A stretch of 64,000 nt of DNA from Janthinobacterium sp. 64 (GTDB lineage: Bacteria; Pseudomonadota; Gammaproteobacteria; Burkholderiales; Burkholderiaceae_D): the NCBI RefSeq assembly GCF_002813325.1, contig NZ_PHUG01000001.1:2914001-2978000 (forward strand), written 5' to 3'. Made by a program: the position numbers and the translations under genes. Positions 326-16,636 of this stretch are shown piece after piece. Below the pieces are notes generated by a model. That model ran no database searches, was not told the DNA's origin, and saw only the letters and a list, made by a program, of their open reading frames with translations. Every line of letters starts with the position of its first letter. Position 1 is the first letter of the stretch.

Positions 326-1879
326 ACCACCGCCATCCACCTGCTGTTACTCACCGACCTGGTCGCCGACCTGCCCGTGGCCGTGCGCCTGCAGCGCCTG
401 GTGGGCAGCCTGCGCGCGCACTTCGGCTGCGAGGCCGTGGCCTTGCTGAAAATCGATGGCGAGCACCTGCACCCCGTGGCGATGGCCGGCCTGGCCAGCG
501 ATGCGCTGGGACGCCGCTTCGCCGTTGCCGACCATCCGCGCCTGGCCGCCATCCTGCAGCGGCGCGGCGTGCTGTGCTTCCATCACGACAGCTCCCTGCC
601 CGATCCCTACGATGGCCTGATCGCCGAGCGGGCCGGCGAGCCGCTGCCCGTGCACGACTGCATGGGCATGGCGCTGGACCTGGAAGGCGAACGCTGGGGC
701 GTGATCACGCTCGACGCGCTGCAGGTGGGCACCTTCGACGCGCGGGCGCAGCGCGACCTGGGCGAGCTGGCCTGCGCCATCGAGGCGGCCGTGCGCGTGA
801 CCCGCCTGGAGACGGAAATCCGCGCCCTGCGCCTGTCGGGCGGCGCCATGCTGGCCGATGCGCAGGCGCCGCGCGAGGAACATGACTTCGTCGGCCAGAG
901 CAGCGCCATCACGCAGCTGCTGCACGAATTACAGGTGGTCGCCGATTCCGAACTGCCCGTGCTGCTGCTGGGAGAAACGGGCGTGGGCAAGGAACTGTGC
1001 GCGCACCGCTTGCACCGCCTGTCGCGCCGCGCGGGCAAGCCCCTGATCCACGTCAATTGCGCGGCCTTGCCCGAGTCCCTGGCCGAAAGCGAATTGTTCG
1101 GCCATGTGCGCGGTGCGTTTTCCGGCGCCGTCAGCGACCGGCCTGGCCGATTTGAGGCGGCCGAAGGGGGCACGCTGTTTCTCGATGAAGTGGGGGAATT
1201 GCCATTGTCGATACAAGCCAAGCTGCTGCGCACCTTGCAAAATGGCGAAATCCAGCGCCTGGGCGCGGACCGGCCGCGCCGGGTCAACGTGCGCGTGATC
1301 GCCGCCACCAACCGCAGCCTGCGCGAGCATGTGCGCGACGGCACGTTCCGCGCCGACCTGTATCACCGTTTATCCGTGTATCCCGTGCCGATTCCGCCGC
1401 TGCGCGAGCGGGGCAATGACGTGCTGCTGCTGGCCGGTGGTTTCCTGGAACTGAACCGCGCGCGCCTGGGCCTGCGCAGCCTGCGCCTGTCCGCCGCGGC
1501 GGAAAACGCGCTCTGCCACTACCGCTGGCCGGGCAACGTGCGCGAACTGGAACATGTGATCAGCCGGGCCGCGCTGAAAGCGGTGATCCGCGGCGCGAAC
1601 CGCAAGGACATCGTGACCCTGGAAACGGATATGCTCGACCTCGATGCGCTGGAAGCGCCGGCCGGCACGGACGCGCTGCCGCCAGTGCCAGGCGCGTGCG
1701 GCACGCCGGCGGCACCGCCGCTGTCCATGCATCAGATCGTGGAAGCGAGCCAGCGCCAGGCCATCCGGCAAGCGCTGGCCCTGCATCAGGATAACTGGGC
1801 CGCTGCGGCGCGCCAGCTGGGACTCGACGCCAGCAATTTGCATAAGCTGGCGCGCCGCGTCGGACTGAAGAACACCTAA
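320..1879 (+). CDS. norR: Nitric oxide-responsive sigma-54 activator NorR
   Basis: NorR senses nitric oxide through a non-haem iron in its N-terminal GAF domain and then drives sigma-54 polymerase. The N-terminal 170 or so residues look like a GAF domain. The AAA+ domain follows with Walker A GETGVGKE, the sigma-54-contacting GAFSGA loop, Walker B LFLDEVGE and the arginine-finger region ending in WPGNVRELEH. The C-terminus carries a Fis-type helix-turn-helix (NWAAAARQLGLDASNLHKLA). About 519 residues is normal for NorR. ATG 320 is chosen because the protein then begins MTTTAIHLLLLTDLV; ATG 311 is an in-frame alternative and neither has a clear ribosome binding site. The divergent sigma-54 promoter and three GGT-N7-ACC sites support the name strongly. 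Confidence 0.9.
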   Translation: MTTTAIHLLLLTDLVADLPVAVRLQRLVGSLRAHFGCEAVALLKIDGEHLHPVAMAGLASDALGRRFAVADHPRLAAILQRRGVLCFHHDSSLPDPYDGLIAERAGEPLPVHDCMGMALDLEGERWGVITLDALQVGTFDARAQRDLGELACAIEAAVRVTRLETEIRALRLSGGAMLADAQAPREEHDFVGQSSAITQLLHELQVVADSELPVLLLGETGVGKELCAHRLHRLSRRAGKPLIHVNCAALPESLAESELFGHVRGAFSGAVSDRPGRFEAAEGGTLFLDEVGELPLSIQAKLLRTLQNGEIQRLGADRPRRVNVRVIAATNRSLREHVRDGTFRADLYHRLSVYPVPIPPLRERGNDVLLLAGGFLELNRARLGLRSLRLSAAAENALCHYRWPGNVRELEHVISRAALKAVIRGANRKDIVTLETDMLDLDALEAPAGTDALPPVPGACGTPAAPPLSMHQIVEASQRQAIRQALALHQDNWAAAARQLGLDASNLHKLARRVGLKNT

Positions 1880-1912
1880 CCAAACCTACTGCGCGTCGGT
1901 TTTGTCAGGTGT
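1872..1912 (+). repeat. Dispersed 3'-end palindromic element, short copy
   Basis: This is a 41-base element overlapping the norR stop codon. Its arms ACACCTAACCAAACC (1872-1886) and GGTTTTGTCAGGTGT (1898-1912) pair with two or three mismatches around the conserved core TACTGCGCGTC. Longer relatives lie at 8173-8292 and 16511-16620; this copy lacks their roughly 80-base middle. The position just past the stop suggests an RNA 3'-end or terminator-like role. Confidence 0.7.
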
Positions 1913-1942
1913 CAGAACAACCAATCAATCCGGCGCTATAAC

Positions 1943-2284
1943 TCAGCGGTGGGTCACCAGGGTGGTCGGCAGGCTGTGGAAGTAGGCGGCCAGGTCCTTG
2001 ATGTCCTGGTTGCTCAGCGCTTTCACCTGGCCCGTCATGATGGCGTTGTTGCGGCCATTGGCCTTGTCGCCCCGCTTATACGCGGTCAAGGCGTGTTCCA
2101 GGTAATCCTTGTGCTGGCCCGCCAGTTTCGGGTACGACGGGTCGCTGGGCGAGCCGTAATCCTTGCCGTGGCAGTTGGCACAGCTGTATTTTTCGGCCAG
2201 GGCTTTACCGGTATTGATATTGCCGGCGGCGCTGGCGGAAAACGAGACGGTGGCGCAAACGAAGGCGGCGAGTAGTGTTTTCAT
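1943..2284 (-). CDS. Small periplasmic class I cytochrome c
   Basis: A 113-residue protein with a signal peptide (MKTLLAAFVCATVSFSASA, cut near residue 19) and one haem-binding CANCH motif around residues 36-40. The likely distal Met ligand is in the NNAIMTGQVKALSNQDI segment. It should be a monohaem electron carrier in the periplasm, matured by the Ccm or Ccs system. Its neighbour upstream on the same strand (2296-2625) is a similar cytochrome, 11 bases away, so the two are probably co-transcribed. They resemble the paired c4/c5-like 'c553' proteins that feed terminal oxidases or denitrification enzymes; the nearby norR makes the second plausible but does not prove it. Confidence 0.85.
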   Translation of the reverse strand: MKTLLAAFVCATVSFSASAAGNINTGKALAEKYSCANCHGKDYGSPSDPSYPKLAGQHKDYLEHALTAYKRGDKANGRNNAIMTGQVKALSNQDIKDLAAYFHSLPTTLVTHR

Positions 2285-2295
2285 CTGGCTGATCC

Positions 2296-2625
2296 TCAGT
2301 TCGGCTTGGCTTGTTGCGCATAATACGCGGCGACATCGGCGATATCCTGGTCCGACAGGCTGCTGGCGATACCCTTCATGCTGGGGTGCTTGCGATCGCC
2401 CTTCTTGTAGGCTTGCAGCGCATTTTCGATATATTTTGCCGGCTGGCCGCCGATCATCGGCACCTGGAACACTTCAGGGAAGGTCGCCTTGTAACCGGGG
2501 ATGCCGTGGCAACCGATACACATTTCCACCTTGGCAGGGGCTGCCTTGGCGTTTCCTACAATGTCAGCCGCTGTGACGGCATTTGCTATGCCGGCAAGCA
2601 CGAGAAGTGCAAATATTTTTTTCAT
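2296..2625 (-). CDS. Small periplasmic class I cytochrome c
   Basis: A 109-residue protein starting at the ATG at 2625, which gives a clean signal peptide (MKKIFALLVLAGIANAVTAA). Extending the frame upstream adds about 70 residues with no signal-like or conserved features, so the shorter start is preferred. It has one haem motif, CIGCH, a Met region (HPSMKGIASSLSDQDI) and an alpha-helical C-terminus ending AYYAQQAKPN, the layout of a monohaem cytochrome c. It is first of a two-gene pair with the cytochrome at 1943-2284, with which it shares the KKGDRK/KRGDKA and LS-QDI segments, suggesting tandem duplication. Confidence 0.85.
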   Translation of the reverse strand: MKKIFALLVLAGIANAVTAADIVGNAKAAPAKVEMCIGCHGIPGYKATFPEVFQVPMIGGQPAKYIENALQAYKKGDRKHPSMKGIASSLSDQDIADVAAYYAQQAKPN

Positions 2626-2858
2626 AGTGGCAATGTGAACAAAGGTAATCGGAGAAACGCCAGAGCTGGTTTTTTTTGATTTTATGTGTTGACAATTAAG
2701 GTTGCCAATTAATCTGCTGCTTGCCGATTCTAGCCAAGATATTCTTGCAAGTCCACCTATAAAACCCGCATTGTAGGCGGGCAGGCACAGCCCGTCCGCG
2801 TGACGCCGGGCCGCAGTTCTGTTTATACTCACCGTTTCCCCACTTTGGCAGACCGCTC

Positions 2859-3728
<870 letters not shown>

Positions 3729-3737
3729 GGAGCGCCG

Positions 3738-4376
3738 GTGAACGACATCAGCCCCGACAAAGTCTTCGTCCCCCTGGAACTGCACGGCATCCGTCTCGAA
3801 GCGCTGGCGCCGCACCATGCAGCCGGCTTGCGCGCGGCGGCCATGGATGGCGAACTGTGGAATCTGCGCGTCACTTCCGTGCCCGAGCCGGAGCAGGTGG
3901 ACCAGTACATTTTCAAGGGCATCGAGATGCGCCCCACGCGCTTCGCCTTTGCCGTCATCGATGTGGCCAGTGGCGAGGTGCTGGGCACCACCAGCTACCA
4001 CGACGTGGTGCCGGAGGTAAAACGCCTGGAAATCGGCTACACCTGGTATGCGCAGCGCTGCCAGCGCAGCCACGTCAACACTACCTGCAAATTGCTGCTG
4101 CTGACGCACGCCTTCGACACGCTCGGCTGCGCGCTGGTGGGCCTGCGCACCGATAATTTCAACCACGCCTCGCAGGCGGCCATCGAACGCCTGGGCGCGA
4201 AAAAGGATGGCGTGCTGCGCCACCATGCACTGCGCCGCGACGGCACCGTGCGCGACACGGTCATGTACAGCATCACGCGCGGCGAATGGCCGGAAATTGC
4301 CGCCCATTTGCGCTACAAGCTGGCGCAGCGCCCCATCGCCGCGCTGCCCCGCGCGGGGGAACCCGCGCCATGCTGA
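3738..4376 (+). CDS. GNAT-family N-acetyltransferase (RimJ/RimL-like)
   Basis: A 212-residue protein with a GTG start at 3738 and an AAGGAG ribosome binding site at 3727-3732. The fold is recognisable from the N-terminal beta strand with substrate-side helices, the RLEIGYTWYA strand, the acetyl-CoA binding segment after it and the C-terminal NHASQAAIERLGAKKDGVLR region. This last segment is typical of RimJ/RimL-type enzymes that acetylate protein N-termini, amino acids or small amines. The substrate is unknown. It lies inside a MoxR/VWA operon and overlaps the VWA gene by seven bases (ATGCTGA), implying translational coupling. Confidence 0.82.
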   Translation: MNDISPDKVFVPLELHGIRLEALAPHHAAGLRAAAMDGELWNLRVTSVPEPEQVDQYIFKGIEMRPTRFAFAVIDVASGEVLGTTSYHDVVPEVKRLEIGYTWYAQRCQRSHVNTTCKLLLLTHAFDTLGCALVGLRTDNFNHASQAAIERLGAKKDGVLRHHALRRDGTVRDTVMYSITRGEWPEIAAHLRYKLAQRPIAALPRAGEPAPC

Positions 4377-5539
4377 TCGACTTCTTCTTCACGCTCAAGG
4401 ATGCGAAGATTCCCGTCTCGATCAAGGAATTTCTGACCCTTCTTGAGGCGCTGCAAAAGAACGTCATCGGCGCCTCGATGGACGATTTCTATTATCTTTC
4501 GCGCCTGACCCTGGTCAAGGATGAAGCGCATTTCGACAAGTTCGACCGCGCGTTTGCGCAGTACTTCAAGGGCGTCAACGCGGCCTTCGACACGAACGCG
4601 GCGATACCGCTCGACTGGCTGCTGAAACGCATGCAGCGCGAACTGTCCGACGAGCAGAAGGCGCAGCTGGAAAAATTCGGCTACGACAAGCTGATGGACC
4701 GCCTCAATGAACTGCTGAAGGAACAGAAGGAGCGCCACGAGGGCGGCAGCAAGTGGATCGGCACGGGTGGCACATCGCCGTTCGGCAATGGCGGCACGAA
4801 TCCGGAAGGCATCCGCATCGGCGGCACGGGCGGCAACCGCACGGCCGTGAAAGTGTGGGAAGCGCGCAGCTACAAGGATTACGACGGCGAGCGCGAACTG
4901 GGCACGCGCAACATCAAGGTGGCCTTGCGCCGCCTGCGCAAATTCGCACGCGAAGGCGCGGAAGACGAACTGGCGCTGGACGCCACCATCGCCGCCACGG
5001 CCAACAACGCCGGTTATCTCGACATCAGGATGCGGCCCGAGCGCAAGAACCGCATCAAGGTGCTGATGCTGTTCGACGTGGGCGGCAGCATGGACGACCA
5101 TATCGAGCGCACCGAGGAACTGTTTTCGGCGGCGAAGACGGAATTCAAGAACATGGAGTTCTTTTACTTCCATAACTGTGTCTACGACTATTTGTGGAAG
5201 AACAACCGGCGCCGCAACGCCGAACGTTTTCCCACCTGGGACGTGCTGCGCAAATACCCGCCCGACACCAAGCTGATTTTCGTCGGCGACGCCACCATGA
5301 GCCCCTATGAAATCCTGCAGCCGGGCGGCAGCGTCGAATACAACAACGAGGAAGCGGGATCGACGTGGCTGGCGCGCTTTACCCAGGCGTTCCCGAAATT
5401 CATCTGGCTCAATCCCGAGGCGGAGGGATTGTGGCAGTACCGCCAGTCGATCGGCGTGATGCGGCAATTGATGAACAACCGCATGTTCCCCCTGTCGATC
5501 GACGGGCTGGAACGGGGCATGCGTCTGCTTAGTAAATAA
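4370..5539 (+). CDS. VWA-domain protein (CoxE-like), MoxR partner
   Basis: A 389-residue protein starting at ATG 4370 inside the end of the acetyltransferase gene; upstream extension of the frame only reads through that gene. The N-terminal half is helical and charged, with a glycine-rich stretch near residues 125-165. The C-terminal half is a von Willebrand A domain, whose metal site would be LFDVGGSMDD. The canonical MIDAS is DxSxS; here it is D-V-G-G-S, so the first serine is replaced by glycine. VWA proteins of this class work with MoxR ATPases to load or activate cofactors in large enzymes or membrane complexes. The client is not apparent nearby. Confidence 0.85.
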   Translation: MLIDFFFTLKDAKIPVSIKEFLTLLEALQKNVIGASMDDFYYLSRLTLVKDEAHFDKFDRAFAQYFKGVNAAFDTNAAIPLDWLLKRMQRELSDEQKAQLEKFGYDKLMDRLNELLKEQKERHEGGSKWIGTGGTSPFGNGGTNPEGIRIGGTGGNRTAVKVWEARSYKDYDGERELGTRNIKVALRRLRKFAREGAEDELALDATIAATANNAGYLDIRMRPERKNRIKVLMLFDVGGSMDDHIERTEELFSAAKTEFKNMEFFYFHNCVYDYLWKNNRRRNAERFPTWDVLRKYPPDTKLIFVGDATMSPYEILQPGGSVEYNNEEAGSTWLARFTQAFPKFIWLNPEAEGLWQYRQSIGVMRQLMNNRMFPLSIDGLERGMRLLSK

Positions 5540-5852
5540 AAGCACGCAACAAAAAGTCCATGGCGGCTGGCCGCCGCCATGTCGTACACTGCGGTACGAA
5601 ACTACCGTGCGGAGCATCTCCGCTGCGGGCGGGTACCATACGCTGACACCAGCCCTGCCCCATTCTGCTGCATCCTGTGCGCGGCCGCCATGGCCGCGAC
5701 ACTGTTCGATTGCGCACATCGTGCGCGCCGTCTGCTCCGGTAGAATCGGCGTATCGCTCTGCGCAAACCATGCACCATCGCTGCACCACGACCTTGCCGC
5801 GCCAGCCTCCGTGCTGCCGGCCGGTGCCAGCGCCATTTTCAAAGGAATGAGC
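5540..5852. other. Intergenic stretch with one strong inverted repeat
   Basis: This 313-base gap separates the VWA gene from the antiporter gene. It holds a perfect inverted repeat, CATGGCGGC-TGGCC-GCCGCCATG (5559-5581). On the minus strand a U-rich run would follow the hairpin two bases later, terminator-like, yet no minus-strand gene ends here. An open frame continues upstream of the antiporter start but has no ribosome binding site and no conserved features. No promoter is obvious. Confidence 0.5.
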
Positions 5853-7040: not shown

Positions 7041-8171
7041 ATGCCGCTGGAACCCTTTGGCCAATCGGCCGCGCTGACCTTCGGCGTCGAACTCGAACTG
7101 CAACTGGTGAACCTGTCGGACTATGACTTGACGGCCGCCAGCCCAGACCTGCTGCATCTGCTGAATAAAAAACCGTTCCCCGGCAACGTCACGCCGGAAA
7201 TCACCGAGAGCATGATCGAGATTAACTCGAGCGTGCACACGCATCACGGTCCCCTGCTGGAGCAATTGCAGGAAATCCGCGACACCTTGATCACGGCCGG
7301 CGACAAGCTCAATATCGGCATCGCCGGCGGCGGCACGCACCCGTTCCAGCAATGGTCGTCGCAAAAGATCTTTTCCAAGCCCCGCTTCCAGGAGATTTCG
7401 GAACTGTACGGCTACCTGGCCAAGCAATTCACCATCTTCGGCCAGCACGTGCACATCGGCTGCGCCTCGGGCGACGACGCCATGTTCCTGCTGCATTCGC
7501 TGAACCGCTACATCCCCCACTTCATCGCCCTGTCAGCGTCGTCCCCCTATGTGCAGGGGCGCGATACCCTGTTCGATTCGGCCCGCCTGAATTCCGTGTT
7601 CGCGTTTCCCATGAGCGGGCGCGCGCCGTTCACCTTGAGCTGGGAGCAGTTCTCCAACGAGTACTTCGCCAAGATGGAGAACACGGGCATCATCAAGAGC
7701 ATGAAGGATTTTTACTGGGATATCCGCCCCAAGCCGGAATTCGGCACCATCGAACTGCGCGTGTGCGACACGCCACTGACGGTGGAGCGGGCCGCCGCGC
7801 TGGCCGCCTACCTGCAGGCGCTGTGCCGCTACCTGCTCGAACGCCGCGAAACCCCGCCGGTGGAAGACGATTACCTCGTGTATAACTACAACCGCTTCCA
7901 GGCTTGCCGCTTCGGCCTCGATGGCGCCATCACGCATCCGAAAACCTACGAAACGATGTCGCTGCGCGAAGACATCATGACGACGCTGCGCAAGATGGAA
8001 CCGCACGCCGAGGCGCTGGGCAGCACGCCGGCCCTGAAGCACCTGTCGGACGTGGCCAAGCAATGGAGCGACGCGCAATACCTGCGCAAGCAGCGCAATG
8101 TGCAGGGCAGCGCCGAAGGCATGGTCGATTCGGCGATCCGCTGCTTCCGGGGCGAACCGATGAACTATTGA
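7041..8171 (+). CDS. YbdK-type carboxylate-amine ligase (glutamate-cysteine ligase family 2)
   Basis: A 376-residue enzyme whose ATG directly abuts the antiporter stop codon. The N-terminal [12 protein letters not shown] segment is the ATP/glutamate-binding beta strand of the GCS2 family. The motifs [36 protein letters not shown] and [20 protein letters not shown] are all conserved features of the YbdK group. These ATP-dependent enzymes join an amino acid carboxylate to an amine; E. coli YbdK has weak glutamate-cysteine ligase activity and its physiological substrate is uncertain. Here it is probably co-transcribed with the antiporter, and a dispersed 3' element starts two bases after its stop codon. 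Confidence 0.88.
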
Positions 8172-8172
8172 G

Positions 8173-8292
8173 GATGCCTGGCCAAACCTGCTGCGCGTCG
8201 GTATAGGCGGCCTGCGATGCTCACCGTACCTTCGTACGGTTGCGCTTCTTAGCCACCTCTCCCTTCCGCTCGCGACGGTTTTGCCAGTCATC
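8173..8292 (+). repeat. Dispersed 3'-end palindromic element, full copy A
   Basis: A 120-base element beginning two bases after the stop codon at 8171. Outer arms GATGCCTGGCCAAACC and GGTTTTGCCAGTCATC pair with two mismatches. The core CTGCGCGTCG follows the left arm. An inner hairpin ACCGTAC-CTTC-GTACGGT lies at 8223-8240. Copy B at 16511-16620 has the same plan with compensatory changes in both stems. The role is unknown; the position suggests an RNA 3'-end structure. Confidence 0.8.
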
Positions 8293-8377
8293 GTGATTTT
8301 TACCCCAACAACGCAACCCAAAAAACCACACCCCGCCTGCCCGTCATTTACAGCCACCTCCCCCGCTTGTTACAATA

Positions 8378-8396
8378 AGTGAGAATGATTCTTATT
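8378..8396. promoter_or_regulatory. Fur box
   Basis: AGTGAGAATGATTCTTATT contains the palindromic core GAATGATTC and agrees well with the 19-base Fur consensus GATAATGATAATCATTATC. It ends 50 bases before the sigma/anti-sigma fusion gene, so that gene and probably the receptor behind it should be repressed when iron is plentiful. Confidence 0.8.
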
Positions 8397-8446
8397 ATTG
8401 TTTAAAAACACCAGCCCACCCGGGCGGGTCATGCAAGGGGAACGCG

Positions 8447-9763
8447 ATGCCGCTGGCAGAGCCGCTACAACGCCAGGACATCGCGACACTGTATGCCGAC
8501 CACCACGGCTGGCTGCAGGGCTGGCTGCGCAAGAAACTCGGCAGCACGGCCAGCGCGGCCGATGTGGCGCAGGATACCTTCATGCGCCTGCTCGACCGCG
8601 AAGACGCCGTCGCCGCGCGCGAACCGCGCGCCTTTCTCGCCACCGTCGCGCAGCGTGTGCTGTTCAACCATTACCGCCGCCAGAAACTGGAACAGGCGTA
8701 TTTCGACGTGCTGGCGCAGCTGCCGCCCCTGCATGCGCCATCACCCGAGGAACGGGCGCTGCTGCTGGCCACCGTGTCTGAACTGGACCGCATGCTCGAC
8801 GGCTTGCCGCCCCCCGTCAAGCGGGCTTTCTTGCTACGCCAGCTCGACGAGCTGCCGCAGGAAGATATCGCGCGCCAGCTCGGCATCTCGCTGGCGACGG
8901 TAAAACGCCATCTGCAGCGCGCCGGCAGCGCCACGCAGGCGTGGCAGCAGCTGCAAATGCAGCATGAACATCTGCCGCCTGCGGCGCACGCGAGCCTGCT
9001 GCGCGCCTGCGTGCAAGCGAATGCGCCGCGCCGCCATGCCGTCAAGACGCTGGTCCTGCTGCTGGCCTGCGGCGCCTCGCTGCATGCGTTCGAACGCCGC
9101 AGCCCATGGCGCGGCTGGATGGCCGACTACCGCACGGCCGTCAACCAGCGCCGCGTCGTGACCCTCGCTGACGGCACGCAGCTCACGCTCAACACCAGCA
9201 GCGCCGTCAATATCGTTTACGACGGCGCACAGCGCCGCATTCAACTGCTGGCCGGCGAGATCTTCATCGCCACCGGCAAGGATGCGGTACAACGGCCCTT
9301 CTTCGTCGACACGCCGCACGGCAGCCTGCAGGCGCTGGGCACGCGCTTCACCGTGCGCCTGCACGAAGGCTATGCCAGCGCCGGCGTGCTCGAAGGCGCC
9401 GTCGCCGTGCTGGCCGGCGATGGCGCACAGCGCCTGGTGCTGCGTCCCGGCGAAGGCGCCCATTTCGACGGCACGGGCGCGCACCGCCAGGCACTGGCGC
9501 CGTATGGCGGCGCGTGGCTCAATGGCATGCTGGTGGCGCGCGACATGCGCCTGGCCGATTTCCTCGCCGAGCTGTCGCGCTACAGCGACCCTCCGCTGGG
9601 CTGTACGCCCGCCGTCGCCAGCCTGCGCGTGTCCGGTTCCTACCCGCTGACCGATGTCGGCGCCATCCTCGACGCCGTCAGCGCCAGCCTGCAACTGCGG
9701 CGCAATACCGTCACGCGCTTCTGGGGGCATCAGGTGGTGCGCATCGACCTGGCGGCCCACTGA
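8447..9763 (+). CDS. ECF sigma factor (FecI-like) fused in frame to FecR-type regulator
   Basis: One 438-residue frame carries two proteins that are normally separate. Residues 1-158 are a FecI-type ECF sigma factor: region 2 (HHGWLQGWLRKKLGSTASAA, DVAQDTFMRLL) and region 4 (LPQEDIARQLGISLATVKRH). From residue 163 the sequence matches FecR but begins only at the very end of its cytoplasmic anti-sigma domain (QAWQQLQM). A single membrane helix follows at about 198-215, then a periplasmic FecR domain (RRVVTLADGTQLTLNTSSAV; LQALGTRFTV). Most of the anti-sigma domain (DUF4880) is missing. The start has an AAGGGG site, and a Fur box lies 50 bases before it. The receptor gene follows 95 bases later. 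Sigma/anti-sigma fusions are known (IutY of Pseudomonas putida); here the shortened linker is unusual. Confidence 0.85.
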   Translation: MPLAEPLQRQDIATLYADHHGWLQGWLRKKLGSTASAADVAQDTFMRLLDREDAVAAREPRAFLATVAQRVLFNHYRRQKLEQAYFDVLAQLPPLHAPSPEERALLLATVSELDRMLDGLPPPVKRAFLLRQLDELPQEDIARQLGISLATVKRHLQRAGSATQAWQQLQMQHEHLPPAAHASLLRACVQANAPRRHAVKTLVLLLACGASLHAFERRSPWRGWMADYRTAVNQRRVVTLADGTQLTLNTSSAVNIVYDGAQRRIQLLAGEIFIATGKDAVQRPFFVDTPHGSLQALGTRFTVRLHEGYASAGVLEGAVAVLAGDGAQRLVLRPGEGAHFDGTGAHRQALAPYGGAWLNGMLVARDMRLADFLAELSRYSDPPLGCTPAVASLRVSGSYPLTDVGAILDAVSASLQLRRNTVTRFWGHQVVRIDLAAH

Positions 9764-9858
9764 AAAATATTTTCTGCAAAGTGAGCTGTTTCGCCGTGCT
9801 CGCGTGACTTGGTAGATAGACATTCCCCATCTTGCGCAATCACGAAAGGTTTTATTCC

Positions 9859-12330
9859 ATGCACCACGCTTCGCGTTCCCTCCTTACCCGCACCGTCCTG
9901 GCCTGCGCCCTGTCGCAGATCGGCATGGCCCTGGCCCTGCCAGCATCAGCCCAGGCGCAAAGCCGGCAAGTGCGCACCTACAGCATTCCGGCCGGCGCGC
10001 TCGGTGACGTGCTGACGCGTTTCGGCAGCGACAGCGCCATTTTATTATCGTTCTCCAGCGAGTCCACGCAAGGTTTGCGCAGCGCCGGGCTGCAAGGCAG
10101 CTATGGCCTGCAAGAGGGCTTCCGCGTGCTGCTGGCCGGCAGCGGCCTGCAAGCCGTGCCGCAATCAAATGGCGGCTACCTGCTGCAAAAAATCCCCGCC
10201 AGCGCCAGCGCACCCACGGCGGACAGCCGTGGCGTGGCCATCATGAGCGGCGTCACCGTGGTGGCGGCGGCCGAGCGCAACGCCGCCACCAGCGGCACGG
10301 CCAGCTATACGGGCGGCCCTGCCAGCGGCGCCACGGGCCTGGCCCTGACGCAGCGCGAAACACCGCAATCGCTGACCATCGTCACGCGCCAGCAGATGGA
10401 TGACCAGAACAGCAACGCCGTTTCCGACGTCATGAAAAACGTCAATGGCGTGAGCGTGCAAAACTATGACAGCGACCGCTGGAGCTTCCAGGCGCGCGGC
10501 TTTTCCGTCACCAATTTCCAGTACGATGGCGTGTCGGCCATCTATGACGGCGTCTACGACTGGGGCACGACCAACAGCGACATGGCCATCTATGACCGCA
10601 TCGAAGTGCTGAAGGGCGCGACGGGCTTGATGAGCGGCTCGGGCGACCCGTCGGCCACCGTCAACATGGTGCGCAAGCGCCCCACCGCCCACTTCGAAGG
10701 CTCGGCCACCGTCGGCGCGGGATCGTGGGACAACTACCGCGCCGAAGCCGATATCTCCGGTCCCCTGAACGACAGCCGCACGCTGCGCGCCCGCCTGGTG
10801 GGCGCCTACCAGGACAAGCACTCCTACCTGGACCGCTACACGCAGCAAAAATCCGTCGCCTACGGCATCATCGAGGCGGACCTGACCCAAGTCACCCTGC
10901 TGACGGCCGGCTTCACGCACCAGGATTACAAGCCGCGCGGCTCGACCTGGACGGGTTTCCCCGTGCTGTTCTCCGACGGCACCCGCACGGATTTCCCCAC
11001 TTCGTGGAATCCGGCCACGGACTGGAGCCGCCGCGACATGCAGAACACCACGCTGTTTGCGTCGCTCGAACACAGCTTCGCCAACGAGTGGAAAGTAACA
11101 TTGAGCGCCAACCAGCTGCGCAGCAAGCATGACAGCGTGCTCGGTTCGGCCAGCGGCGGCAATCCCAACCCTGTCACCGGCGCAGGCGCGTTTTACTACA
11201 TGGGAAAATACAAGGGCGAGCGCCGCCAGAGCACCGTCAACGTGGACGCCAGCGGGCCATTCACTGCCTTCGGCCGCCGGCATGAAGCGATGTTCGGCTA
11301 TTCCAGTTCGACGGCAAAGCAGGATGGCCCCGTCTACGAATCGGTCTACCCGCCCGTGGAAGGCAGTTACTTTGACTGGCGCGGCCAGTACGCGGAACCG
11401 GCGTTCAAGCGCCTCGGGAACGACAACGACAGCACGCGCCAGAGCGGCCTGTATGGCGCCGTGCGCCTGCGTCCCGTTGACGCGCTGTCGGTCATCGTCG
11501 GGGCGCGCGTGAGCAACTACAAGCAGGAGCAGGACCGCAGCTTCTTCGATCCCAAGACCGCGCGCATCACCTCGCGCATCGAGGAAAATAAGGTCATCAC
11601 GCCGTATGCGGGCGTCGTGTATGACCTCGACAAAACGTACTCCGTGTTCGGCAGCTACACCAGCATCTTCGCGCCGCAGAGCAACCGCGACGTGAACCGC
11701 AACTTTCTGTCGCCCGTGCGCGGCAAGGGTGTGGAAGCGGGCGTGAAGGCAGAATATTTGGATGGCAAGGTCAATGCCAGCACGTCCCTGTTCCAGATCC
11801 GTCAAAGCAACGTGGCCAGCTCCGTGGGCCAAGTCAACGGCGAAGAAGCGTATACAGCCATCGACGGCGTGACCAGCCGCGGCGTGGAAATGGAGGTGAC
11901 GGGCGACGTGATGAAGGATGTGAAGCTGAGCGCCGGCTACACCTACACCCACGTGCGCGACGCGGATGGCAAGGACGTCTTTTCCACCATGCTGCAAACC
12001 ACGCAGCCTGCCCACCTGCTGCGCGTACAGGGCACGTGGCGCCTGCCGGCCAGCCTGGACAAGCTGAGCGTCGGTGGCGGCATCAACTGGCAAAGCAGCT
12101 ACTACGGCAATATCTGGAATCCCGCCATCGAGGACGATTCACGCATCAAGCAGGGCAGCTATGCGCTGGTCAACCTGATGGCGCGCTACGAGATCAGCAA
12201 GAACGTCACGGCCAGCGTCAACGTGAACAACCTGCTCGACAAGAAGTACTTCACGGGCCTGGGCCTGTTCCAGACGGGCTTTTACGGCGAACCGCGCAAT
12301 GTGATGTTCACCGTGCGCACGAAGTTCTGA
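9859..12330 (+). CDS. TonB-dependent siderophore receptor with N-terminal signalling domain
   Basis: An 823-residue outer-membrane receptor (FecA/FpvA class). ATG 9859 is chosen for its GAAAGG site nine bases upstream and the signal peptide that follows (LLTRTVLACALSQIGMALALPASAQA). After cleavage comes an STN signalling domain of about 75 residues (RTYSIPAGALGDVLTRFGSD...). The TonB box region and plug follow (ETPQSLTIVTRQQMDDQN; VLKGATGLMSGSGDPSATVN), then the beta-barrel ending in an aromatic-rich C-terminus (NVMFTVRTKF). The STN domain passes the ligand-bound signal to the FecR part of the adjacent sigma/anti-sigma fusion. The ligand is probably a ferric siderophore, not identified. Confidence 0.92.
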   Translation: MHHASRSLLTRTVLACALSQIGMALALPASAQAQSRQVRTYSIPAGALGDVLTRFGSDSAILLSFSSESTQGLRSAGLQGSYGLQEGFRVLLAGSGLQAVPQSNGGYLLQKIPASASAPTADSRGVAIMSGVTVVAAAERNAATSGTASYTGGPASGATGLALTQRETPQSLTIVTRQQMDDQNSNAVSDVMKNVNGVSVQNYDSDRWSFQARGFSVTNFQYDGVSAIYDGVYDWGTTNSDMAIYDRIEVLKGATGLMSGSGDPSATVNMVRKRPTAHFEGSATVGAGSWDNYRAEADISGPLNDSRTLRARLVGAYQDKHSYLDRYTQQKSVAYGIIEADLTQVTLLTAGFTHQDYKPRGSTWTGFPVLFSDGTRTDFPTSWNPATDWSRRDMQNTTLFASLEHSFANEWKVTLSANQLRSKHDSVLGSASGGNPNPVTGAGAFYYMGKYKGERRQSTVNVDASGPFTAFGRRHEAMFGYSSSTAKQDGPVYESVYPPVEGSYFDWRGQYAEPAFKRLGNDNDSTRQSGLYGAVRLRPVDALSVIVGARVSNYKQEQDRSFFDPKTARITSRIEENKVITPYAGVVYDLDKTYSVFGSYTSIFAPQSNRDVNRNFLSPVRGKGVEAGVKAEYLDGKVNASTSLFQIRQSNVASSVGQVNGEEAYTAIDGVTSRGVEMEVTGDVMKDVKLSAGYTYTHVRDADGKDVFSTMLQTTQPAHLLRVQGTWRLPASLDKLSVGGGINWQSSYYGNIWNPAIEDDSRIKQGSYALVNLMARYEISKNVTASVNVNNLLDKKYFTGLGLFQTGFYGEPRNVMFTVRTKF

Positions 12331-13395
12331 CTAACTGCCGTACAGCGCCAGCGCCCAGGCTGGCGGGCGCAAGTCCAGCGCCAGCGACAGGTAAGCAGGG
12401 TCGAAACGCGCCGCCAGCAGATACACATTGGCGGCGCCCTTCGGTTCCCAGTTCCCCGTAAAACCCTTTTCGCCGGCCGCCACGCGCTTGCGGTCGAAGG
12501 GCACGGCGCTTTTTGCAAATTCCTCGTGCGTCTTTTTGCCCTGCGCATACGGCGCCAGCCAGGCCAGCGCTTCGGCCAGGCGCCGCGCTTCCGGCGCGCC
12601 ATACCAGTCGTCGCCATGCGCCTGCGCCATCAGGGCCGTCGTCAGCAGCGGCTCCAGGCTGTAGGTGGTGTAGTGCAGGGCGTCGCGCTGCTCGAAGTCG
12701 AAGGGCACGCCGCCGGCGCCGATATTGCGCGGCACGTGCGCCAGGAAGCGCTCCTTCGCGCGCGCGATCAGCAAGGCGTCGCCCGTCACATACGCGGCGG
12801 CCGTACCGATCTTGATGCGGTGGCTATGCCAGTTGTTGCGCGCCGTGGACGGGCCGCCCACCTTGATGGGATCACTCAGATACCCTTGCGCCAGGGTGCG
12901 GCAAAACGCCTGTACCTGTTCGCGCTCGACGCCGTTCAAGCGCTCCTGCACCAGGTCAAAGCCCATCAGCAGGCTGGCCAGCTCCGTCTCGTCGACGGGG
13001 CTGAACGATGGCTGATAAGTACCGCTCCAGGCCAGCAGCAACTGGCGCGCTGCCTCGAAATGCGCCAGCTCGCCCGACAGCCGCCAGGCCAGCGCCTGCA
13101 AGCGCGCCTGGCGCCAGTCTTCCTGCGCCTGCTGGCTGGTCTCGCGCCCGCCCTCTCCCTTCAGCAAGCCACCCGTGCGCACTTCGGCCATCAGGTGCAC
13201 GGGCCGCGCCGCATCCTTGCGCGCCGCCTTGATCACCTGCTCGGCAATGGCCGGCGCCACCCGCGCCTTGAGCGTGCGGGCGCGCGCGGCAGACGTCAGC
13301 GCAAACGGCAGCGCCCCCTCATGCGGGCACGGCGCCGCGCGCAAGCCCGCCAGGGGCAGCGCCAGCAGGCCGGCCAGCACAGTGCGCCGGCGCAT
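12331..13395 (-). CDS. Alginate-lyase-like exported protein
   Basis: A 354-residue protein with a probable Tat or Sec signal (MRRRTVLAGLLALPLAGLRA). The start is ATG 13395; a TTG at 13410 would add five residues. The mature part is an alpha/alpha-toroid-like sequence matching the alginate lyase (PL5-type) domain family, with the conserved segment ARNNWHSHRIKIGTAAAYVTGD holding Asn-Asn and His residues typical of the active site. Members cleave uronic-acid polysaccharides by beta-elimination; many proteins with this domain have other or untested substrates. It lies two codons beyond the stop of the amidotransferase-like gene upstream, so the pair is co-transcribed. It converges end to end with the receptor gene with no gap. 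Confidence 0.7.
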   Translation of the reverse strand: MRRRTVLAGLLALPLAGLRAAPCPHEGALPFALTSAARARTLKARVAPAIAEQVIKAARKDAARPVHLMAEVRTGGLLKGEGGRETSQQAQEDWRQARLQALAWRLSGELAHFEAARQLLLAWSGTYQPSFSPVDETELASLLMGFDLVQERLNGVEREQVQAFCRTLAQGYLSDPIKVGGPSTARNNWHSHRIKIGTAAAYVTGDALLIARAKERFLAHVPRNIGAGGVPFDFEQRDALHYTTYSLEPLLTTALMAQAHGDDWYGAPEARRLAEALAWLAPYAQGKKTHEEFAKSAVPFDRKRVAAGEKGFTGNWEPKGAANVYLLAARFDPAYLSLALDLRPPAWALALYGS

Positions 13396-13406
13396 CCGGT
13401 GCGTAC

Positions 13407-14414
13407 TCAAAACCGCGTCTCCCGCGCCGCGCGCAAAAAGTTATCGAGGATGGGCGTGCAATCGAGCAGTTCGACGCCGCCCGCCGAATGGAATTCCGGG
13501 TGCCACTGCAAGCCCATGACGAAGCGCGCCCGCTGATAGCGGATGGCTTCGACGATATTGTCGCCTTGCGAATATGCTTCCACGGTGACGTCGCGTCCCA
13601 GGTCCTTGACCGACTGGTGGTGGATGGAATTGACGAGCGCCTCGCCCGTCTTCGGAAACATGCCCGCCAGGGACGAGCCTTTCGGGAAGACGATGGTGTG
13701 GCGGTGGCGGTCATACAGGTCGTTGACGTGGGAAGTCGCGCCTTCCACGTCCGAGGCGATGTCCTGATACAGCGTGCCGCCAAAGCCCACGTTGATCAGT
13801 TGGCAGCCGCGGCATATACCCAGCACGGGTTTGCCCGCATCGACGAATTCGTGCAGCAGTTCCAGTTCGTACAGGTCGCGCGCGCGGTCGCCGTTCCATT
13901 CCGGCCGCGTGGCCGCCTCGGAATACGTCTGCGGCGAGACGTCGGCGCCGCCCTGCAGCACCAGCCCATCGAGGTGGCGCGCATAGTGGCGCAGGGTGAT
14001 GTTGCTCGGGTGTAGCTGGCCGCTGGTATTGACCGTCGGGATCATGAACACCAGCACGTCGCGCGACATGACCCACTGCGCGATCGACTCTTCCAGGTAT
14101 TGCAGGTTCTTGCTGCGCAGGCCAGTGGCGCCCGGCTCGGGGTGAAAAATGCGCGCCGAGATGCCGATGCGCAGGGTGCGCCGCATGAAATCGCGACTGG
14201 CCTTGTCGCGCATGGAGCGGTAGCGCGACGAGATCACGCGCCAGGCCAGCGCAAGCGGCGTGTCGTTATCCTTCAGGTAGCGGGGGGCGGCGTCGCGCGC
14301 GCGGTGCTCGTCATCGGGTGCCCGGCGACCCACGCGGTCGGGCCGCGCCGGTGCTGGCTCTGGTGGCGCTGGGTCGGTGGACGGGGGAAGCAGGGGATCT
14401 TTTTCGTCTGACAT
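13407..14414 (-). CDS. Gamma-glutamyl-gamma-aminobutyrate hydrolase-like protein (peptidase C26)
   Basis: A 335-residue class I glutamine-amidotransferase-like hydrolase. The nucleophile elbow is VLGICRGCQLINVGFGGTL, with Cys in G-I-C-R-G, and the catalytic His-Glu pair is in MGLQWHPEFH. The oxyanion strand is GLVLQGGADVSP. The family includes PuuD, which releases GABA from gamma-glutamyl-GABA in putrescine breakdown. This protein has an extra N-terminal, proline- and arginine-rich region of about 90 residues before the catalytic domain, so its substrate may differ. It is first in a two-gene unit with the alginate-lyase-like gene. No putrescine genes are nearby. Confidence 0.82.
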   Translation of the reverse strand: MSDEKDPLLPPSTDPAPPEPAPARPDRVGRRAPDDEHRARDAAPRYLKDNDTPLALAWRVISSRYRSMRDKASRDFMRRTLRIGISARIFHPEPGATGLRSKNLQYLEESIAQWVMSRDVLVFMIPTVNTSGQLHPSNITLRHYARHLDGLVLQGGADVSPQTYSEAATRPEWNGDRARDLYELELLHEFVDAGKPVLGICRGCQLINVGFGGTLYQDIASDVEGATSHVNDLYDRHRHTIVFPKGSSLAGMFPKTGEALVNSIHHQSVKDLGRDVTVEAYSQGDNIVEAIRYQRARFVMGLQWHPEFHSAGGVELLDCTPILDNFLRAARETRF

Positions 14415-14633
14415 GGCGGGGCTGACTGAAAGCGGAGAACGGTTTCAATATAACCCCCTGCCTCCGAAAGCACGATTCAATTTTGTAACAAAAGCATACC
14501 CGCGGGGCATCCGCGCAACACGCCGTCGGCAAACGCATACGCCCCGTTTACGCCGGTGGCCCCGCTTTTTAGAGAATCTTTACGCCCCCGCTGCTAATCT
14601 TGAACGTACCTCAACCACCGCTGCAAAGACACC

Positions 14634-14951
14634 ATGGAACCCCATTCACGCCTGCAAACGCATCAAGCGCATCAAGCACATCACGCACTGCCCCACCGCC
14701 ATCCCCGCCTGCCCACTTTCCTCATGCATATCACGGTCGACAAGTCTTGCCTGGCCGAGCTGCGCCAGCTGGTCGTCAAAACGTGCGGCGGCATGCTGTC
14801 GTTCATGCGCGTCGAGGCGGTCGACCATGCCGAACGCATGAAGGTCTGGCTGTGCGTGACGGAGCCTGCCCTGCGCCTGACCATGGATGCCGTCATGCGC
14901 CTGTTGCCAGCGGCGGAATTTGGCCGCATCAGCCAGGGGAAATCACTATGA
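14634..14951 (+). CDS. Small uncharacterised protein ahead of the DapA-like gene
   Basis: Up to 105 residues. The ATG at 14634 adds a His-rich leader (HSRLQTHQAHQAHHALPHRH) that may not be real; the internal ATG at 14724 would give a 75-residue protein beginning MHITVDKSCLAELRQLV. Neither start has a strong ribosome binding site. The conserved-looking part has alternating short strands and helices (GGMLSFMRVEAVDHAERMKVWLCV), with no signal peptide or membrane segment. The stop overlaps the next start (ATGA), implying translational coupling with the DapA-like gene. I do not recognise a family. Confidence 0.6.
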   Translation: MEPHSRLQTHQAHQAHHALPHRHPRLPTFLMHITVDKSCLAELRQLVVKTCGGMLSFMRVEAVDHAERMKVWLCVTEPALRLTMDAVMRLLPAAEFGRISQGKSL

Positions 14952-15985
14952 ACCAGTATGCCTGCGAGCAGGCGATGTCTTCGTCGCGCATCACCGCGCA
15001 CTTCCAGGGTATCTGGGTGCCGATGGTCACGCCCTTCCTTGATGGCGATGGCGACATCGACTTCGACGCGGCCCAGCAGCTGGCCAGCGAGCTGGCCGCC
15101 AGCGGCATCGATGGTCTGGTGGTGTGCGGCACCACGGGCGAAGCGGCCATGCTGAGCGCCGCCGAACACACCATGCTGTTAGATAGCGTGCTCGAAGCCG
15201 TCGGCCCCCGCTTTCCCGTCGTGATGGGGATAGGCGGTAGCGATACGCGCCAGGTCACCGCCACGGTGCAACGCTACAACGACCACCCGCTGGCCGGCTT
15301 GCTGGTCTCCGCTCCCGCCTATGTGCGCCCTTCGCAGGACGGCATCGTGCGCCACTTCCAGGCCATCGCCGCCGCCACCGACCAGTCCATCGTGCTGTAC
15401 AACGTGCCGGCCCGCACGGGGGTCAATATCGAACCGCAGACGGCGGCGCTGCTGGCGTCCGACTCGCACTTCGTCGCCATCAAGGAAGCGGGCGGCAAGC
15501 TGCAGCAGCTGGGCGAACTGCTGCTCGACACGCGCCTGGACGTGCTGTGCGGCGACGACGCGCTGCTGCTGGCCAGCCTGTCCATGGGCGGCCACGGCGC
15601 CATGTCGGCCGCCGCCCAGATACGCCCCGACCTGTATGCGCAGCTGTATCACCTGGTCAGGCAGGGCCGCCACGGCGCCGCCGGCGCCCTGTTCAAGGTC
15701 ATGCTGCCCGTCATCCGCCTGCTGTTTGCCGAACCCAATCCTGGCCCCGTGAAGGCGGCGCTGGCCATGCAGGGCAAGGTGCGCGACGAGCTGCGCCTGC
15801 CGATGACGCCGATGTCGTCCGCCGGCCAGCACAAGCTGGCCGAAGCACTCGCCCCCCTGATGGAACTGCCCGTATGGACAGCCGGCGACAGGGACGCGCC
15901 GCGCGAAGGCTGTCTGCTGCAGCTGGTCTCCCCTGCCAACATCATGCCAGCCGTGCGCCAAGATGATCATCGCCATCACGGATGA
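14948..15985 (+). CDS. DapA-family (dihydrodipicolinate synthase-like) aldolase
   Basis: A 345-residue TIM-barrel protein of the class I aldolase family that includes 4-hydroxy-tetrahydrodipicolinate synthase and N-acetylneuraminate lyase. It has the substrate-binding GTTGEAAML motif, the catalytic Tyr in VLYNVPARTGVN and the Schiff-base Lys in FVAIKEAGGK. The core fits DapA, which makes the first committed intermediate of lysine and meso-diaminopimelate synthesis. It is longer than the usual 290-300 residues, with about 20 extra at the N-terminus and 35 or more at the C-terminus. The tail overlaps the start of the ParA-like gene by 23 bases. Its operon partners are unusual for housekeeping dapA, so it may be a paralogue. 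Confidence 0.82.
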   Translation: MNQYACEQAMSSSRITAHFQGIWVPMVTPFLDGDGDIDFDAAQQLASELAASGIDGLVVCGTTGEAAMLSAAEHTMLLDSVLEAVGPRFPVVMGIGGSDTRQVTATVQRYNDHPLAGLLVSAPAYVRPSQDGIVRHFQAIAAATDQSIVLYNVPARTGVNIEPQTAALLASDSHFVAIKEAGGKLQQLGELLLDTRLDVLCGDDALLLASLSMGGHGAMSAAAQIRPDLYAQLYHLVRQGRHGAAGALFKVMLPVIRLLFAEPNPGPVKAALAMQGKVRDELRLPMTPMSSAGQHKLAEALAPLMELPVWTAGDRDAPREGCLLQLVSPANIMPAVRQDDHRHHG

Positions 15986-16505
15986 ACGCGGGGGGATGGA
16001 GAAATCCATCCTGGCCGGGAGGCTGGCCGCTTCGCGCGCGCTGGCCGGACGCAAGGTATTGCTGCTCGATGCCGATCCGCGCCAGGGCGCCATGGCGCAG
16101 GCCAGGAACATGCACGACGGCGCCATGCATGGCAGCCTGACGCGGCCGCGCCTGATGGCGCGCGCCATCAGCGCCAAGGGCTTGCAGCCGGAGCTGGAAC
16201 ACCTGGTGCACTGCTACCACGACATCGTCATCGACAGCGAAGGCCGCGACTCCATGGGCAGCCGTTCGGCCCTGATCGCCGCGCGCGTACTGGTGGTGCC
16301 GCTCGACGGTGTCGTGGACGGCGCCGCGCAGGCGGGCCTGGCGCGCCGCATCGCGCACGCGCGCAGCGTCAATCCGGACCTGCGCGTCCTGCTGGCAACG
16401 GATACGCAAACGGCCCCCGCCCATGCCCTGGCCAAGCAGATTCCGGCCGCCCGCGTGGTCAGCCTGGGACAGTTGTATTGCGCCGTCTTTAACCTGCCCA
16501 CTTAG
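15963..16505 (+). CDS. ParA/MinD-like P-loop protein with degenerate Walker A
   Basis: A 180-residue protein starting with MIIAITDERGGMEKSI, followed by GRKVLLLDADPRQGAMAQA, the layout of short ParA-type ATPases of about 200 residues. The deviant Walker A consensus KGGxGKST is changed to R-G-G-M-E-K-S-I: the signature lysine is arginine, the glycine before the catalytic lysine is glutamate, and the final threonine is isoleucine. The switch II aspartate is preserved in the HDIVIDSEGRDS segment. ATP hydrolysis may be weak or lost. No ParB gene or parS-like cluster is near. It overlaps the DapA-like gene and is the last gene of the operon; a dispersed 3' element follows the stop codon. Confidence 0.75.
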   Translation: MIIAITDERGGMEKSILAGRLAASRALAGRKVLLLDADPRQGAMAQARNMHDGAMHGSLTRPRLMARAISAKGLQPELEHLVHCYHDIVIDSEGRDSMGSRSALIAARVLVVPLDGVVDGAAQAGLARRIAHARSVNPDLRVLLATDTQTAPAHALAKQIPAARVVSLGQLYCAVFNLPT

Positions 16506-16510
16506 AGTAC

Positions 16511-16620
16511 CTAACATAACCTACTGCGCGTCGCGATTTGCGGCCTCCGATGCTCACTGTGCATTTGCACAGCTGCGCGTCTCGGCCGCAACTCACTGCC
16601 GCTCGCTACGGTTCTGTTAG
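16511..16620 (+). repeat. Dispersed 3'-end palindromic element, full copy B
   Basis: A 110-base element starting five bases after the stop codon at 16505. Outer arms CTAACATAACC and GGTTCTGTTAG pair with one mismatch. The core CTACTGCGCGTCG is shared with the other copies. The inner hairpin is CTGTGC-ATTT-GCACAG (16557-16572). Relative to copy A both stems carry paired, compensatory substitutions. Confidence 0.8.
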
Positions 16621-16636
16621 CCGCTCTTAAGCACGC

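What the first reader, a model, noticed from the sequence alone, without database searches (positions are those of the whole stretch)
1872..16620. Dispersed element located directly after stop codons, with compensatory base changes
Three copies (1872-1912, 8173-8292, 16511-16620) all share the core CTGCGCGTCG next to a left arm and begin at or within five bases of a stop codon, in the same orientation as the gene (norR, ybdK-like, parA-like). Outer arms differ between copies but stay paired: CTGGC/GCCAG versus CTAAC/GTTAG. The inner stem is CCGTAC/GTACGG in one copy and CTGTGC/GCACAG in another, two more compensated pairs. The first copy lacks the middle segment. Paired changes argue for a selected RNA or DNA structure, possibly a 3'-end or termination element, or a mobile palindrome with preference for gene ends.
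Basis: partly seen in the sequence, partly recalled or inferred. Interest (0 to 1): 0.75.

Follow-up and report, generated by a model that had tools for sequence, protein, structure and literature searches.

The report
Folded DNA repeats abutting stop codons
A roughly 120-base repeat that folds into one long hairpin sits, nearly always the same way round, within a few bases after the stop codons of many unrelated genes in Janthinobacterium, and relatives of it (one already catalogued as half of a 'small RNA') do the same in other Proteobacteria.

Summary
Confirmed, and larger than reported. The three copies belong to a dispersed family: 37 full and 4 short copies found in this Janthinobacterium genome, and matches in 36 of 39 relatives of the genus. 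A full copy is one 122-nt nested hairpin with conserved internal loops and co-varying stems. At 62 of 75 distinct sites a >=100-codon open frame ends within -12..+6 nt of the left end; shifted positions give 2.5, the right end 11. Stems swap Watson-Crick pairs with little wobble outside three edge or loop-side pairs, and the strand antisense to the gene folds better in 128 of 131 copies, which favours folded single-stranded DNA over sense RNA. Sites turn over between species, yet shared copies are usually more conserved than adjacent coding DNA. Rfam 'sRNA' sX9 is the right half of such an element in another genus, again at stop codons. Best reading: a REPIN/MITE-like mobile palindrome lodged at gene ends, mobiliser unknown. 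Terminator and attC readings are not supported. Window copy 1 is an inner-deletion derivative.

The parts
1870..1914 (+). Short copy 1: outer hairpin only (inner hairpin deleted); its left arm supplies the NorR stop codon TAA (1877-1879)
   Evidence: full copy at the same site in L140 and L141
8172..8293 (+). Full copy 2 of the nested palindrome, directly after the YbdK stop codon (TGA 8169-8171)
   Evidence: 129.7 bits to model R1
16505..16626 (+). Full copy 3, overlapping by one base the stop codon (TAG 16503-16505) of the ParA-like gene
   Evidence: 122.1 bits to model R1
8172..8188 (+). Copy 2 left outer arm, pairs with 8277-8293; variable between copies but kept paired
8277..8293 (+). Copy 2 right outer arm
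8189..8197 (+). Copy 2 conserved internal-loop strand TRCTGCGCG (nearly invariant in the aligned copies)
8267..8276 (+). Copy 2 opposite conserved loop strand CGCTCGCKAC (GTAG or GTCG on the bottom strand)
8224..8239 (+). Copy 2 inner tip hairpin CCGTAC/GTACGG (CTGTGC/GCACAG in copy 3)
311..1879 (+). norR, gene ending at copy 1
   Evidence: NF003451, 706 bits
7041..8171 (+). YbdK family carboxylate-amine ligase gene ending at copy 2
   Evidence: NF010040, 578 bits
15963..16505 (+). ParA-like ATPase gene ending at copy 3
   Evidence: NF041546 63.6 bits, below its cut-off of 180

Best explanation
A family of non-autonomous mobile palindromes that works as folded single-stranded DNA, in the manner of REPINs or MITEs. 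The conserved internal loops (TRCT/TA and TCA/TTGC) on the better-folding bottom strand are the probable recognition points of an unidentified recombinase or transposase. Base-paired stems are kept by selection for an intact DNA hairpin and/or by arm-to-arm copying. Copies settle at, or survive mainly at, the first bases after a stop codon in the sense orientation. They are then carried in the 3' untranslated part of the mRNA, in some genes ahead of a native terminator, and are kept nearly unchanged, which suggests some in-place benefit or constraint. Shown: copy number, structure, covariation, stop-codon abutment, polarity, turnover between species, in-place conservation. Inferred: mobility, protein recognition, the strand used, transcription of the copies, and why stop codons are the address.
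For: Dispersed: 37 full + 4 short own copies; matches in 36 of 39 genus relatives, 9 of 20 family and 8 of 40 order genomes; 31 of 398 genomes of the phylum, own included. Turnover: at 24 own sites in 6 related genomes, 130 alleles are 41 full (one of them, L257, in reverse), 13 fragments, 76 absent (fragments called by eye). Structure: 98.9% of 2196 stem cells paired, 134 double-change cells against 29.3 in shuffles. Little RNA signature: outside three edge or loop-side pairs, stems hold GT 6, AC 12, other mismatches 26 of 1056 cells in A2, and GT 2, AC 3, other 10 of 2013 in A3. Bottom strand folds better in 128 of 131 (DNA parameters), and 28 of 28 in the second genus. Stop-codon abutment: 62 of 75 sites. 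Weak sign of a 3-bp duplication at the expected offset in both genera: 13 of 122 observed against 7.0 expected, and 6 of 23 against 2.5.
Against: No mobiliser found: no model hit (E <= 1) in the 7.5-kb stretches around the two own Y1 transposase genes; one of those genes lies near a different palindrome; Y1 proteins also occur in G027, which has no match. No clean empty site: absent alleles mostly have unrelated spacer there. Counted over all 36 pairs GT exceeds AC (28 to 15 in A2, 39 to 11 in A3); 22 of the 28 and 37 of the 39 lie in three pairs that I set aside after seeing the counts. In-place conservation above coding level is more than a purely selfish element needs. Nothing similar in plasmids (two queries) or phages (one query).
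Confidence: 0.56

Rival explanations
1. A host 3'-UTR RNA element: the hairpin protects or processes the mRNA 3' end, or is gated by the terminating ribosome, which would cover the outer arm while it sits on the stop codon. Selection, not insertion, places it beside stop codons.
For: Stop-codon abutment with sense polarity; copies lie between stop codon and a native terminator in several genes (by eye; 21 of 131 with a strict search against 1 of 131 shuffled and 3 upstream coding pieces); element identity (median 97.5%) above upstream coding (92.2%) and downstream spacer (82.5%) in 26 orthologous pairs; the Rfam sRNA sX9 maps to the right half of such an element, so one relative is catalogued as an RNA; two loop-side pairs do show sense-strand G-U.
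Against: Few G-U intermediates in the other variable pairs, and A-C is at least as frequent there. The sense strand is the worse folder in 124 of 131 copies even with RNA parameters. Presence at orthologous genes is erratic.
Confidence: 0.27
2. A REP/REPIN mobilised by a TnpAREP (RAYT) transposase.
For: Bottom strand carries GTAG at the base of a mismatch-containing hairpin in 26 of 32 own copies (read); TnpAREP binds such single-stranded hairpins (PMC8266576, passages); all 40 genus genomes have a Y1 protein.
Against: REPs are 20-50 nt with a leading GTAG (PMC8266576, passages); here 122 nt with the motif internal, and GTCG in 6 of 32. Own Y1 genes have no model hit nearby. G027 has Y1 proteins and no match.
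Confidence: 0.12
3. An integron attC-like site recombined by an integron integrase.
For: Folded bottom strand, position directly after stop codons, and arms CCTAAC/GTTAGG in some copies resemble attC core sites (resemblance recalled).
Against: Commonest arms are CCTGAC/GTCAGG; integron integrase model over its cut-off in 0 of 40 genomes; copies lie far apart singly, not in cassette arrays.
Confidence: 0.02
4. An intrinsic transcription terminator.
For: Strong hairpin at gene ends.
Against: T-rich start after the hairpin in 12 of 131; separate terminator-like hairpins follow in 21 of 131 against 1 of 131 in shuffled controls.
Confidence: 0.03

Closest known systems
Rfam RF02228 sX9 (Xanthomonas sRNA)
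   Same: It is the right-hand half of the same kind of nested palindrome: a distant copy (L356) scores 87.8 bits over a cut-off of 44. In that genus 9 of 13 genomes have matches, up to 12 at E <= 0.001 (10 of those 12 over the cut-off), and at 28 of 30 loci read the left half precedes it (the other two have it with one changed base, by eye).
   Different: Rfam models 76 nt with small hairpins and calls it an sRNA gene; the unit here is about 142 nt, multi-copy, and abuts stop codons. Window copies score at best 27.2 bits, below cut-off.
REP / REPIN elements and TnpAREP
   Same: Dispersed intergenic palindromes near gene 3' ends with mismatched stems. PMC3733652 (one section read) reports REPs under 20 bp from ORF ends and GTAG termini supplying TAG stops.
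   Different: 122-nt single nested hairpin, loops conserved internally, no terminal GTAG/CGTC tag, no RAYT linkage seen; the GTAGGTCGG repeat in the same loci has a stop at -3..+6 in 1 of 23.
MITEs of DDE insertion sequences
   Same: Terminal inverted repeats, no coding capacity, possible 3-bp duplication.
   Different: Arms co-vary instead of being fixed; no parent element seen; duplication only suggestive.
Integron attC sites
   Same: Folded bottom strand and post-stop position (recalled).
   Different: Core sites not kept, no integron integrase over cut-off, no arrays.

Membership tests
REP (GTAG-tagged) | Palindrome of 20-50 nt preceded by GTAG | tested here: not met
   122-nt unit; GTAG internal on the bottom strand, 26 of 32 copies; definition from PMC8266576 passages
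REP (GTAG-tagged) | Copies flank the cognate RAYT gene | tested here: not met
   No R1 match (E <= 1) in 7.5-kb stretches around both own Y1 genes
REP (GTAG-tagged) | Bound and cleaved as ssDNA by TnpAREP | not testable with these tools
   needs biochemistry
Rfam sX9 | Covariance score over the gathering cut-off | tested here: not met
   Window copy 27.2 of 44 bits. Distant copies of the same kind meet it
Integron attC | RYYYAAC / GTTRRRY core sites | tested here: not met
   Commonest arms CCTGAC/GTCAGG; core-site definition recalled
Integron attC | Integron integrase in the genome or genus | tested here: not met
   0 of 40 genomes over the TIGR02249 cut-off
Intrinsic terminator | Hairpin followed at once by a T tract | tested here: not met
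   12 of 131 copies have 5 or more T in the first 8 nt
MITE | Target-site duplication | tested here: inconclusive
   3-mers at -3..-1 and the first three after the element equal in 13 of 122 (7.0 expected) and 6 of 23 (2.5 expected); not the strongest offset in Janthinobacterium
MITE | Related autonomous element with the same ends | tested here: inconclusive
   Left-end pattern gives 43 places in the own genome against 5 for the reversed control; of the AAACC-type places one (C1:5761874) is not among the known copies and was not read

The most novel reading that the evidence does not exclude
A phylum-wide class of folded-DNA elements that uses the translation stop codon as its address: spread and upkeep depend on a bottom-strand ssDNA hairpin whose loops are read by an unknown enzyme, and the position and polarity after stop codons come from the spreading process itself (for example at ssDNA exposed where ribosomes leave the transcript) and not from selection afterwards. 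Catalogued sRNAs such as sX9 would then be mobile-DNA fragments.
Probability: 0.3. Interest if true: 0.82.

Novelty: new variant of a known kind. Interest (0 to 1): 0.63.

Why it matters
Dispersed palindromes near gene ends are known, but a one-way abutment to stop codons within a few bases, holding in genera with quite different element sequences, goes beyond what the REP papers seen here describe. It gives a clean test of how mobile DNA finds, or survives at, gene ends. It also recasts an Rfam sRNA (sX9) as half of a multi-copy palindrome, so sRNA surveys in Proteobacteria may be counting pieces of such elements. Stems that change as whole Watson-Crick pairs may be a practical sign for telling DNA-level from RNA-level structure.

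Tried and rejected
Rfam on the window: only weak sX9 and DnaX matches. Y1 transposases as mobiliser: universal in the genus, not linked (in one search one of the three proteins scanned was the wrong neighbour, a GreA-type factor). Integron integrase: none over cut-off. Outer arms taken from the target site: left arm no closer to its own empty sites than to others (284 of 500 permutations at least as high; right arm 37 of 500), so not adopted. Plasmids and phages: no match. Literature: the listings show no paper recognisable as describing this family (titles and abstract starts only, except the passages and the section); the original sX9 paper is not held. A claim of absence in print rests on these searches only. 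A first regex sorting of alleles missed diverged copies and was replaced by model hits.

Rows dropped: A2 left out two copies with a 13-nt central insert (32 of 34 used). One search dropped 1 duplicate of 71; one search used 69 of 71, and 26 of 29 distant loci (3 too short). One search used 26 of 37 orthologous pairs (11 of unequal size class dropped; means over all 37 are upstream 0.922, element 0.882, downstream 0.755, so with them the element is not ahead of the coding DNA). One search used 23 pairs. The copies of A3 come from the best-scoring listing, not from a random draw. One search scored at most 35 candidates per genome and its match counts may include reverse-strand echoes.
Full report
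WHAT IS THERE. The three copies are real. Search of the whole genome (6.30 Mb, window at C1:2914001-2978000) with a covariance model built from 32 own copies gives 37 full copies and 4 short ones; the other 21 of its 62 rows are weak reverse-strand echoes of the palindrome. 150 of 4631 first-look candidates were scored, so this is a lower bound. Named relatives found with the YbdK protein (best ones 97-99% identical) place the genome in Janthinobacterium, by inference. Among genomes held, 36 of 39 of the same genus have at least one match, 30 of them 20 or more; at most 35 candidates per genome were scored and echoes may be included. One genome rated 100% complete, G027, has none; two with none are 82-83% complete. 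In the wider family 9 of 20 and in the order 8 of 40 genomes match. Across the phylum 31 of 398 genomes and 23 of 213 genera, own included, match at E <= 0.001.

ANATOMY. A full copy is one nested hairpin of about 122 nt: a variable outer arm, a conserved loop TRCTGCGCG opposite CGCTCGCKACG, a middle stem, a second conserved loop GATGCTCA opposite TTGCGCTTC, and a tip hairpin with a variable tip. Many distant copies are 141-144 nt with the same plan and other arms. Some copies carry a GC-rich insert of about 13-16 nt beside the tip, also in the second genus. Deletion forms occur: outer hairpin only, or left half only. Window copy 1 is one, since L140 and L141 have a full copy at the same norR site, while L138 and L139 have none.

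PAIRING. RNAalifold on A2 finds 36 pairs, 19 with changes on both sides. In copies from other Janthinobacterium genomes (A3, 61 distinct) 98.9% of 2196 cells pair, 134 cells carry double changes (shuffles 29.3, 0 of 500 as high), and sliding the partner by 1-3 columns drops pairing to 37-45%. A3 was fitted to the model, which favours the structure; A2 was aligned without it and agrees (95.2% of 1152 cells). What is unusual is how rarely intermediates are seen: most variable pairs swap A-T for G-C, or C-G for T-A, with almost no G-T. Over all 36 pairs GT does exceed AC (28 to 15 in A2, 39 to 11 in A3), but 22 of those 28 and 37 of those 39 lie in three pairs, one at the open end and two beside loops, which I set aside after seeing the counts. 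In the other 33 pairs GT 6 / AC 12 / other mismatches 26 stand among 1056 cells in A2, and GT 2 / AC 3 / other 10 among 2013 in A3. In 23 orthologous pairs of copies, 751 Watson-Crick stem pairs give 728 unchanged, 7 changed on both sides to another Watson-Crick pair, 4 single changes to GT, 7 to AC, and 5 others. A sense RNA should favour GT over AC through the stems; outside the two loop-side pairs this does not. The bottom strand folds better: mean -36.2 against -29.3 kcal/mol with DNA parameters, 128 of 131 copies, a difference of 6.8 (sd 2.7) against 1.5 (sd 1.9) in shuffled copies; with RNA parameters 124 of 131. These facts point to DNA. They do not prove it, and no structured-RNA control was run for the wobble count.

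THE STOP CODON. With a simple codon-usage gene finder, 25 of 41 own copies and 53 of 70 copies from other Janthinobacterium genomes have a same-strand stop ending -3 to +6 nt from the element start; uniform intergenic placement in the window would give 6.7%. A further 5 and 6 have it at -9 or -10, inside the first ten model positions; the rest (11 and 11) are farther off, on the other strand, or without a called gene. Without any gene finder, 62 of 69 copies have a >=120-codon open stretch ending at -12..+6, against a mean of 1.5 (maximum 8) at shifted positions. Collapsing shared sites, 62 of 75 sites have a >=100-codon one at the left end and 11 at the right end (shifted mean 2.5, maximum 6). 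Another repeat in the same loci, GTAGGTCGG, has a stop at -3..+6 in 1 of 23 cases, its reverse in 0 of 23, and GGGTCRGACC in 1 of 11. In the distant set 11 of 26 abut on the left and 3 on the right (shifted mean 0.46, maximum 3). At ybdK, at the ParA-like gene and at several other sites the stop is native, since alleles without the element have one at the same place; at norR and at the L029 site the element supplies it.

TURNOVER AND CONSTRAINT. At 24 own sites (two of them short copies) in six related genomes, 130 alleles sort into 41 full, 13 fragments and 76 absent. Absent alleles usually have an unrelated spacer or another palindrome there, so precise insertion points could not be read. 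Where both species have a copy of the same size class (26 of 37 pairs), the element is 97.5% identical (median), the coding DNA just upstream 92.2% and the next 60 nt downstream 82.5%; the element beats the coding DNA in 22 of 26. Over all 37 pairs, unequal sizes included, the means are 88.2%, 92.2% and 75.5%, so there the element is not ahead. Copies too diverged for the model are missing from this comparison, which flatters the element.

THE sX9 LINK. The window copies match Rfam sX9 only weakly (27.2 bits, cut-off 44). A distant copy, L356, matches it at 87.8 bits. In that unnamed genus (Xanthomonas is my inference from the family name) 9 of 13 genomes have matches over the cut-off, up to 12 matches per genome at E <= 0.001, and none of 14 control genomes does. 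Of 30 loci read, 28 show the left half by motif and 2 more by eye with one changed base; 20 of 28 have a long-ORF stop near the left end, 18 of them at 0 or -1, though several are one site seen in more than one species; the bottom strand folds better in 28 of 28. So sX9 is the right half of the same kind of element. A paper listing sX9 in two Herbaspirillum species was seen as passages only.

WHAT IT PROBABLY IS. I commit to a non-autonomous mobile palindrome acting as folded single-stranded DNA, lodged at stop codons and carried in 3' UTRs (0.56; lowered from 0.58, with the RNA rival raised from 0.25 to 0.27, when the full GT/AC count was written out). The mobiliser is unknown. The two own Y1 transposase genes have no copy in the 7.5 kb read around each, one lies near a GGGTCAGACCC palindrome, and Y1 proteins occur in all 40 genomes including G027, which has no match. 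No integron integrase reaches its cut-off in the genus. A 3-bp duplication (TNA-like) is hinted at the right offset in both genera (13 of 122 against 7.0; 6 of 23 against 2.5), but other offsets score higher in Janthinobacterium. TNA reads the same on both strands, so it could not explain the one-way orientation; that needs an oriented insertion step or selection on the transcript. The main rival, a host RNA element in 3' UTRs (0.27), explains abutment, polarity and in-place conservation well, but not the scarce wobble pairs, the better-folding antisense strand or the erratic presence.

NOVELTY. REPs close to ORF ends, some supplying TAG stops, are in print (PMC3733652, one section read), as are REPINs (PMC3116915, passages) and ssDNA recognition of mismatched REPs (PMC8266576, passages). 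A 122-142-nt nested palindrome with one-way abutment within a few bases across genera was not seen in the searches listed. I rate it a new variant of a known kind.

Noticed in passing
window 8447-9763 (+): Single ORF that joins an ECF sigma factor (FecI type, residues about 10-160) to a FecR-type regulator (about 162-427).
   Followed up: no
window 18577-18607 (-): Weak match to the DnaX frameshifting element (27.6 bits, cut-off 35), inside a 917-aa ORF on the same strand.
   Followed up: no
L136 3488-3528 (own genome near C1:2410500): A palindrome GGGGTCAGACCC...GGGTCTGACCCC at a TAA stop, about 0.3 kb from a Y1 transposase gene; possibly that transposase's own REP family.
   Followed up: partly
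L219, L221, L228, L323, L337 and others: Another dispersed palindrome, GTAGGTCGGATTAG...CGTAATCCGAC, takes the place of the element after the same genes in related species.
   Followed up: partly
L055, L011, L307, L329, L347 and L425, L432, L440: A GC-rich insert of about 13-16 nt beside the tip hairpin recurs in unrelated copies, with different sequence in the two genera; origin unexplained.
   Followed up: no
A2 columns 19 and 104 (window 8190 and 8274 in copy 2): Loop bases appear to co-vary without being complementary: TACT goes with GCTACG and TGCT mostly with GCGACG (L019 is an exception).
   Followed up: no
G027 (Janthinobacterium genome rated 100% complete): The one highly complete genome of the genus without any match; a useful contrast for finding the mobiliser.
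   Followed up: partly
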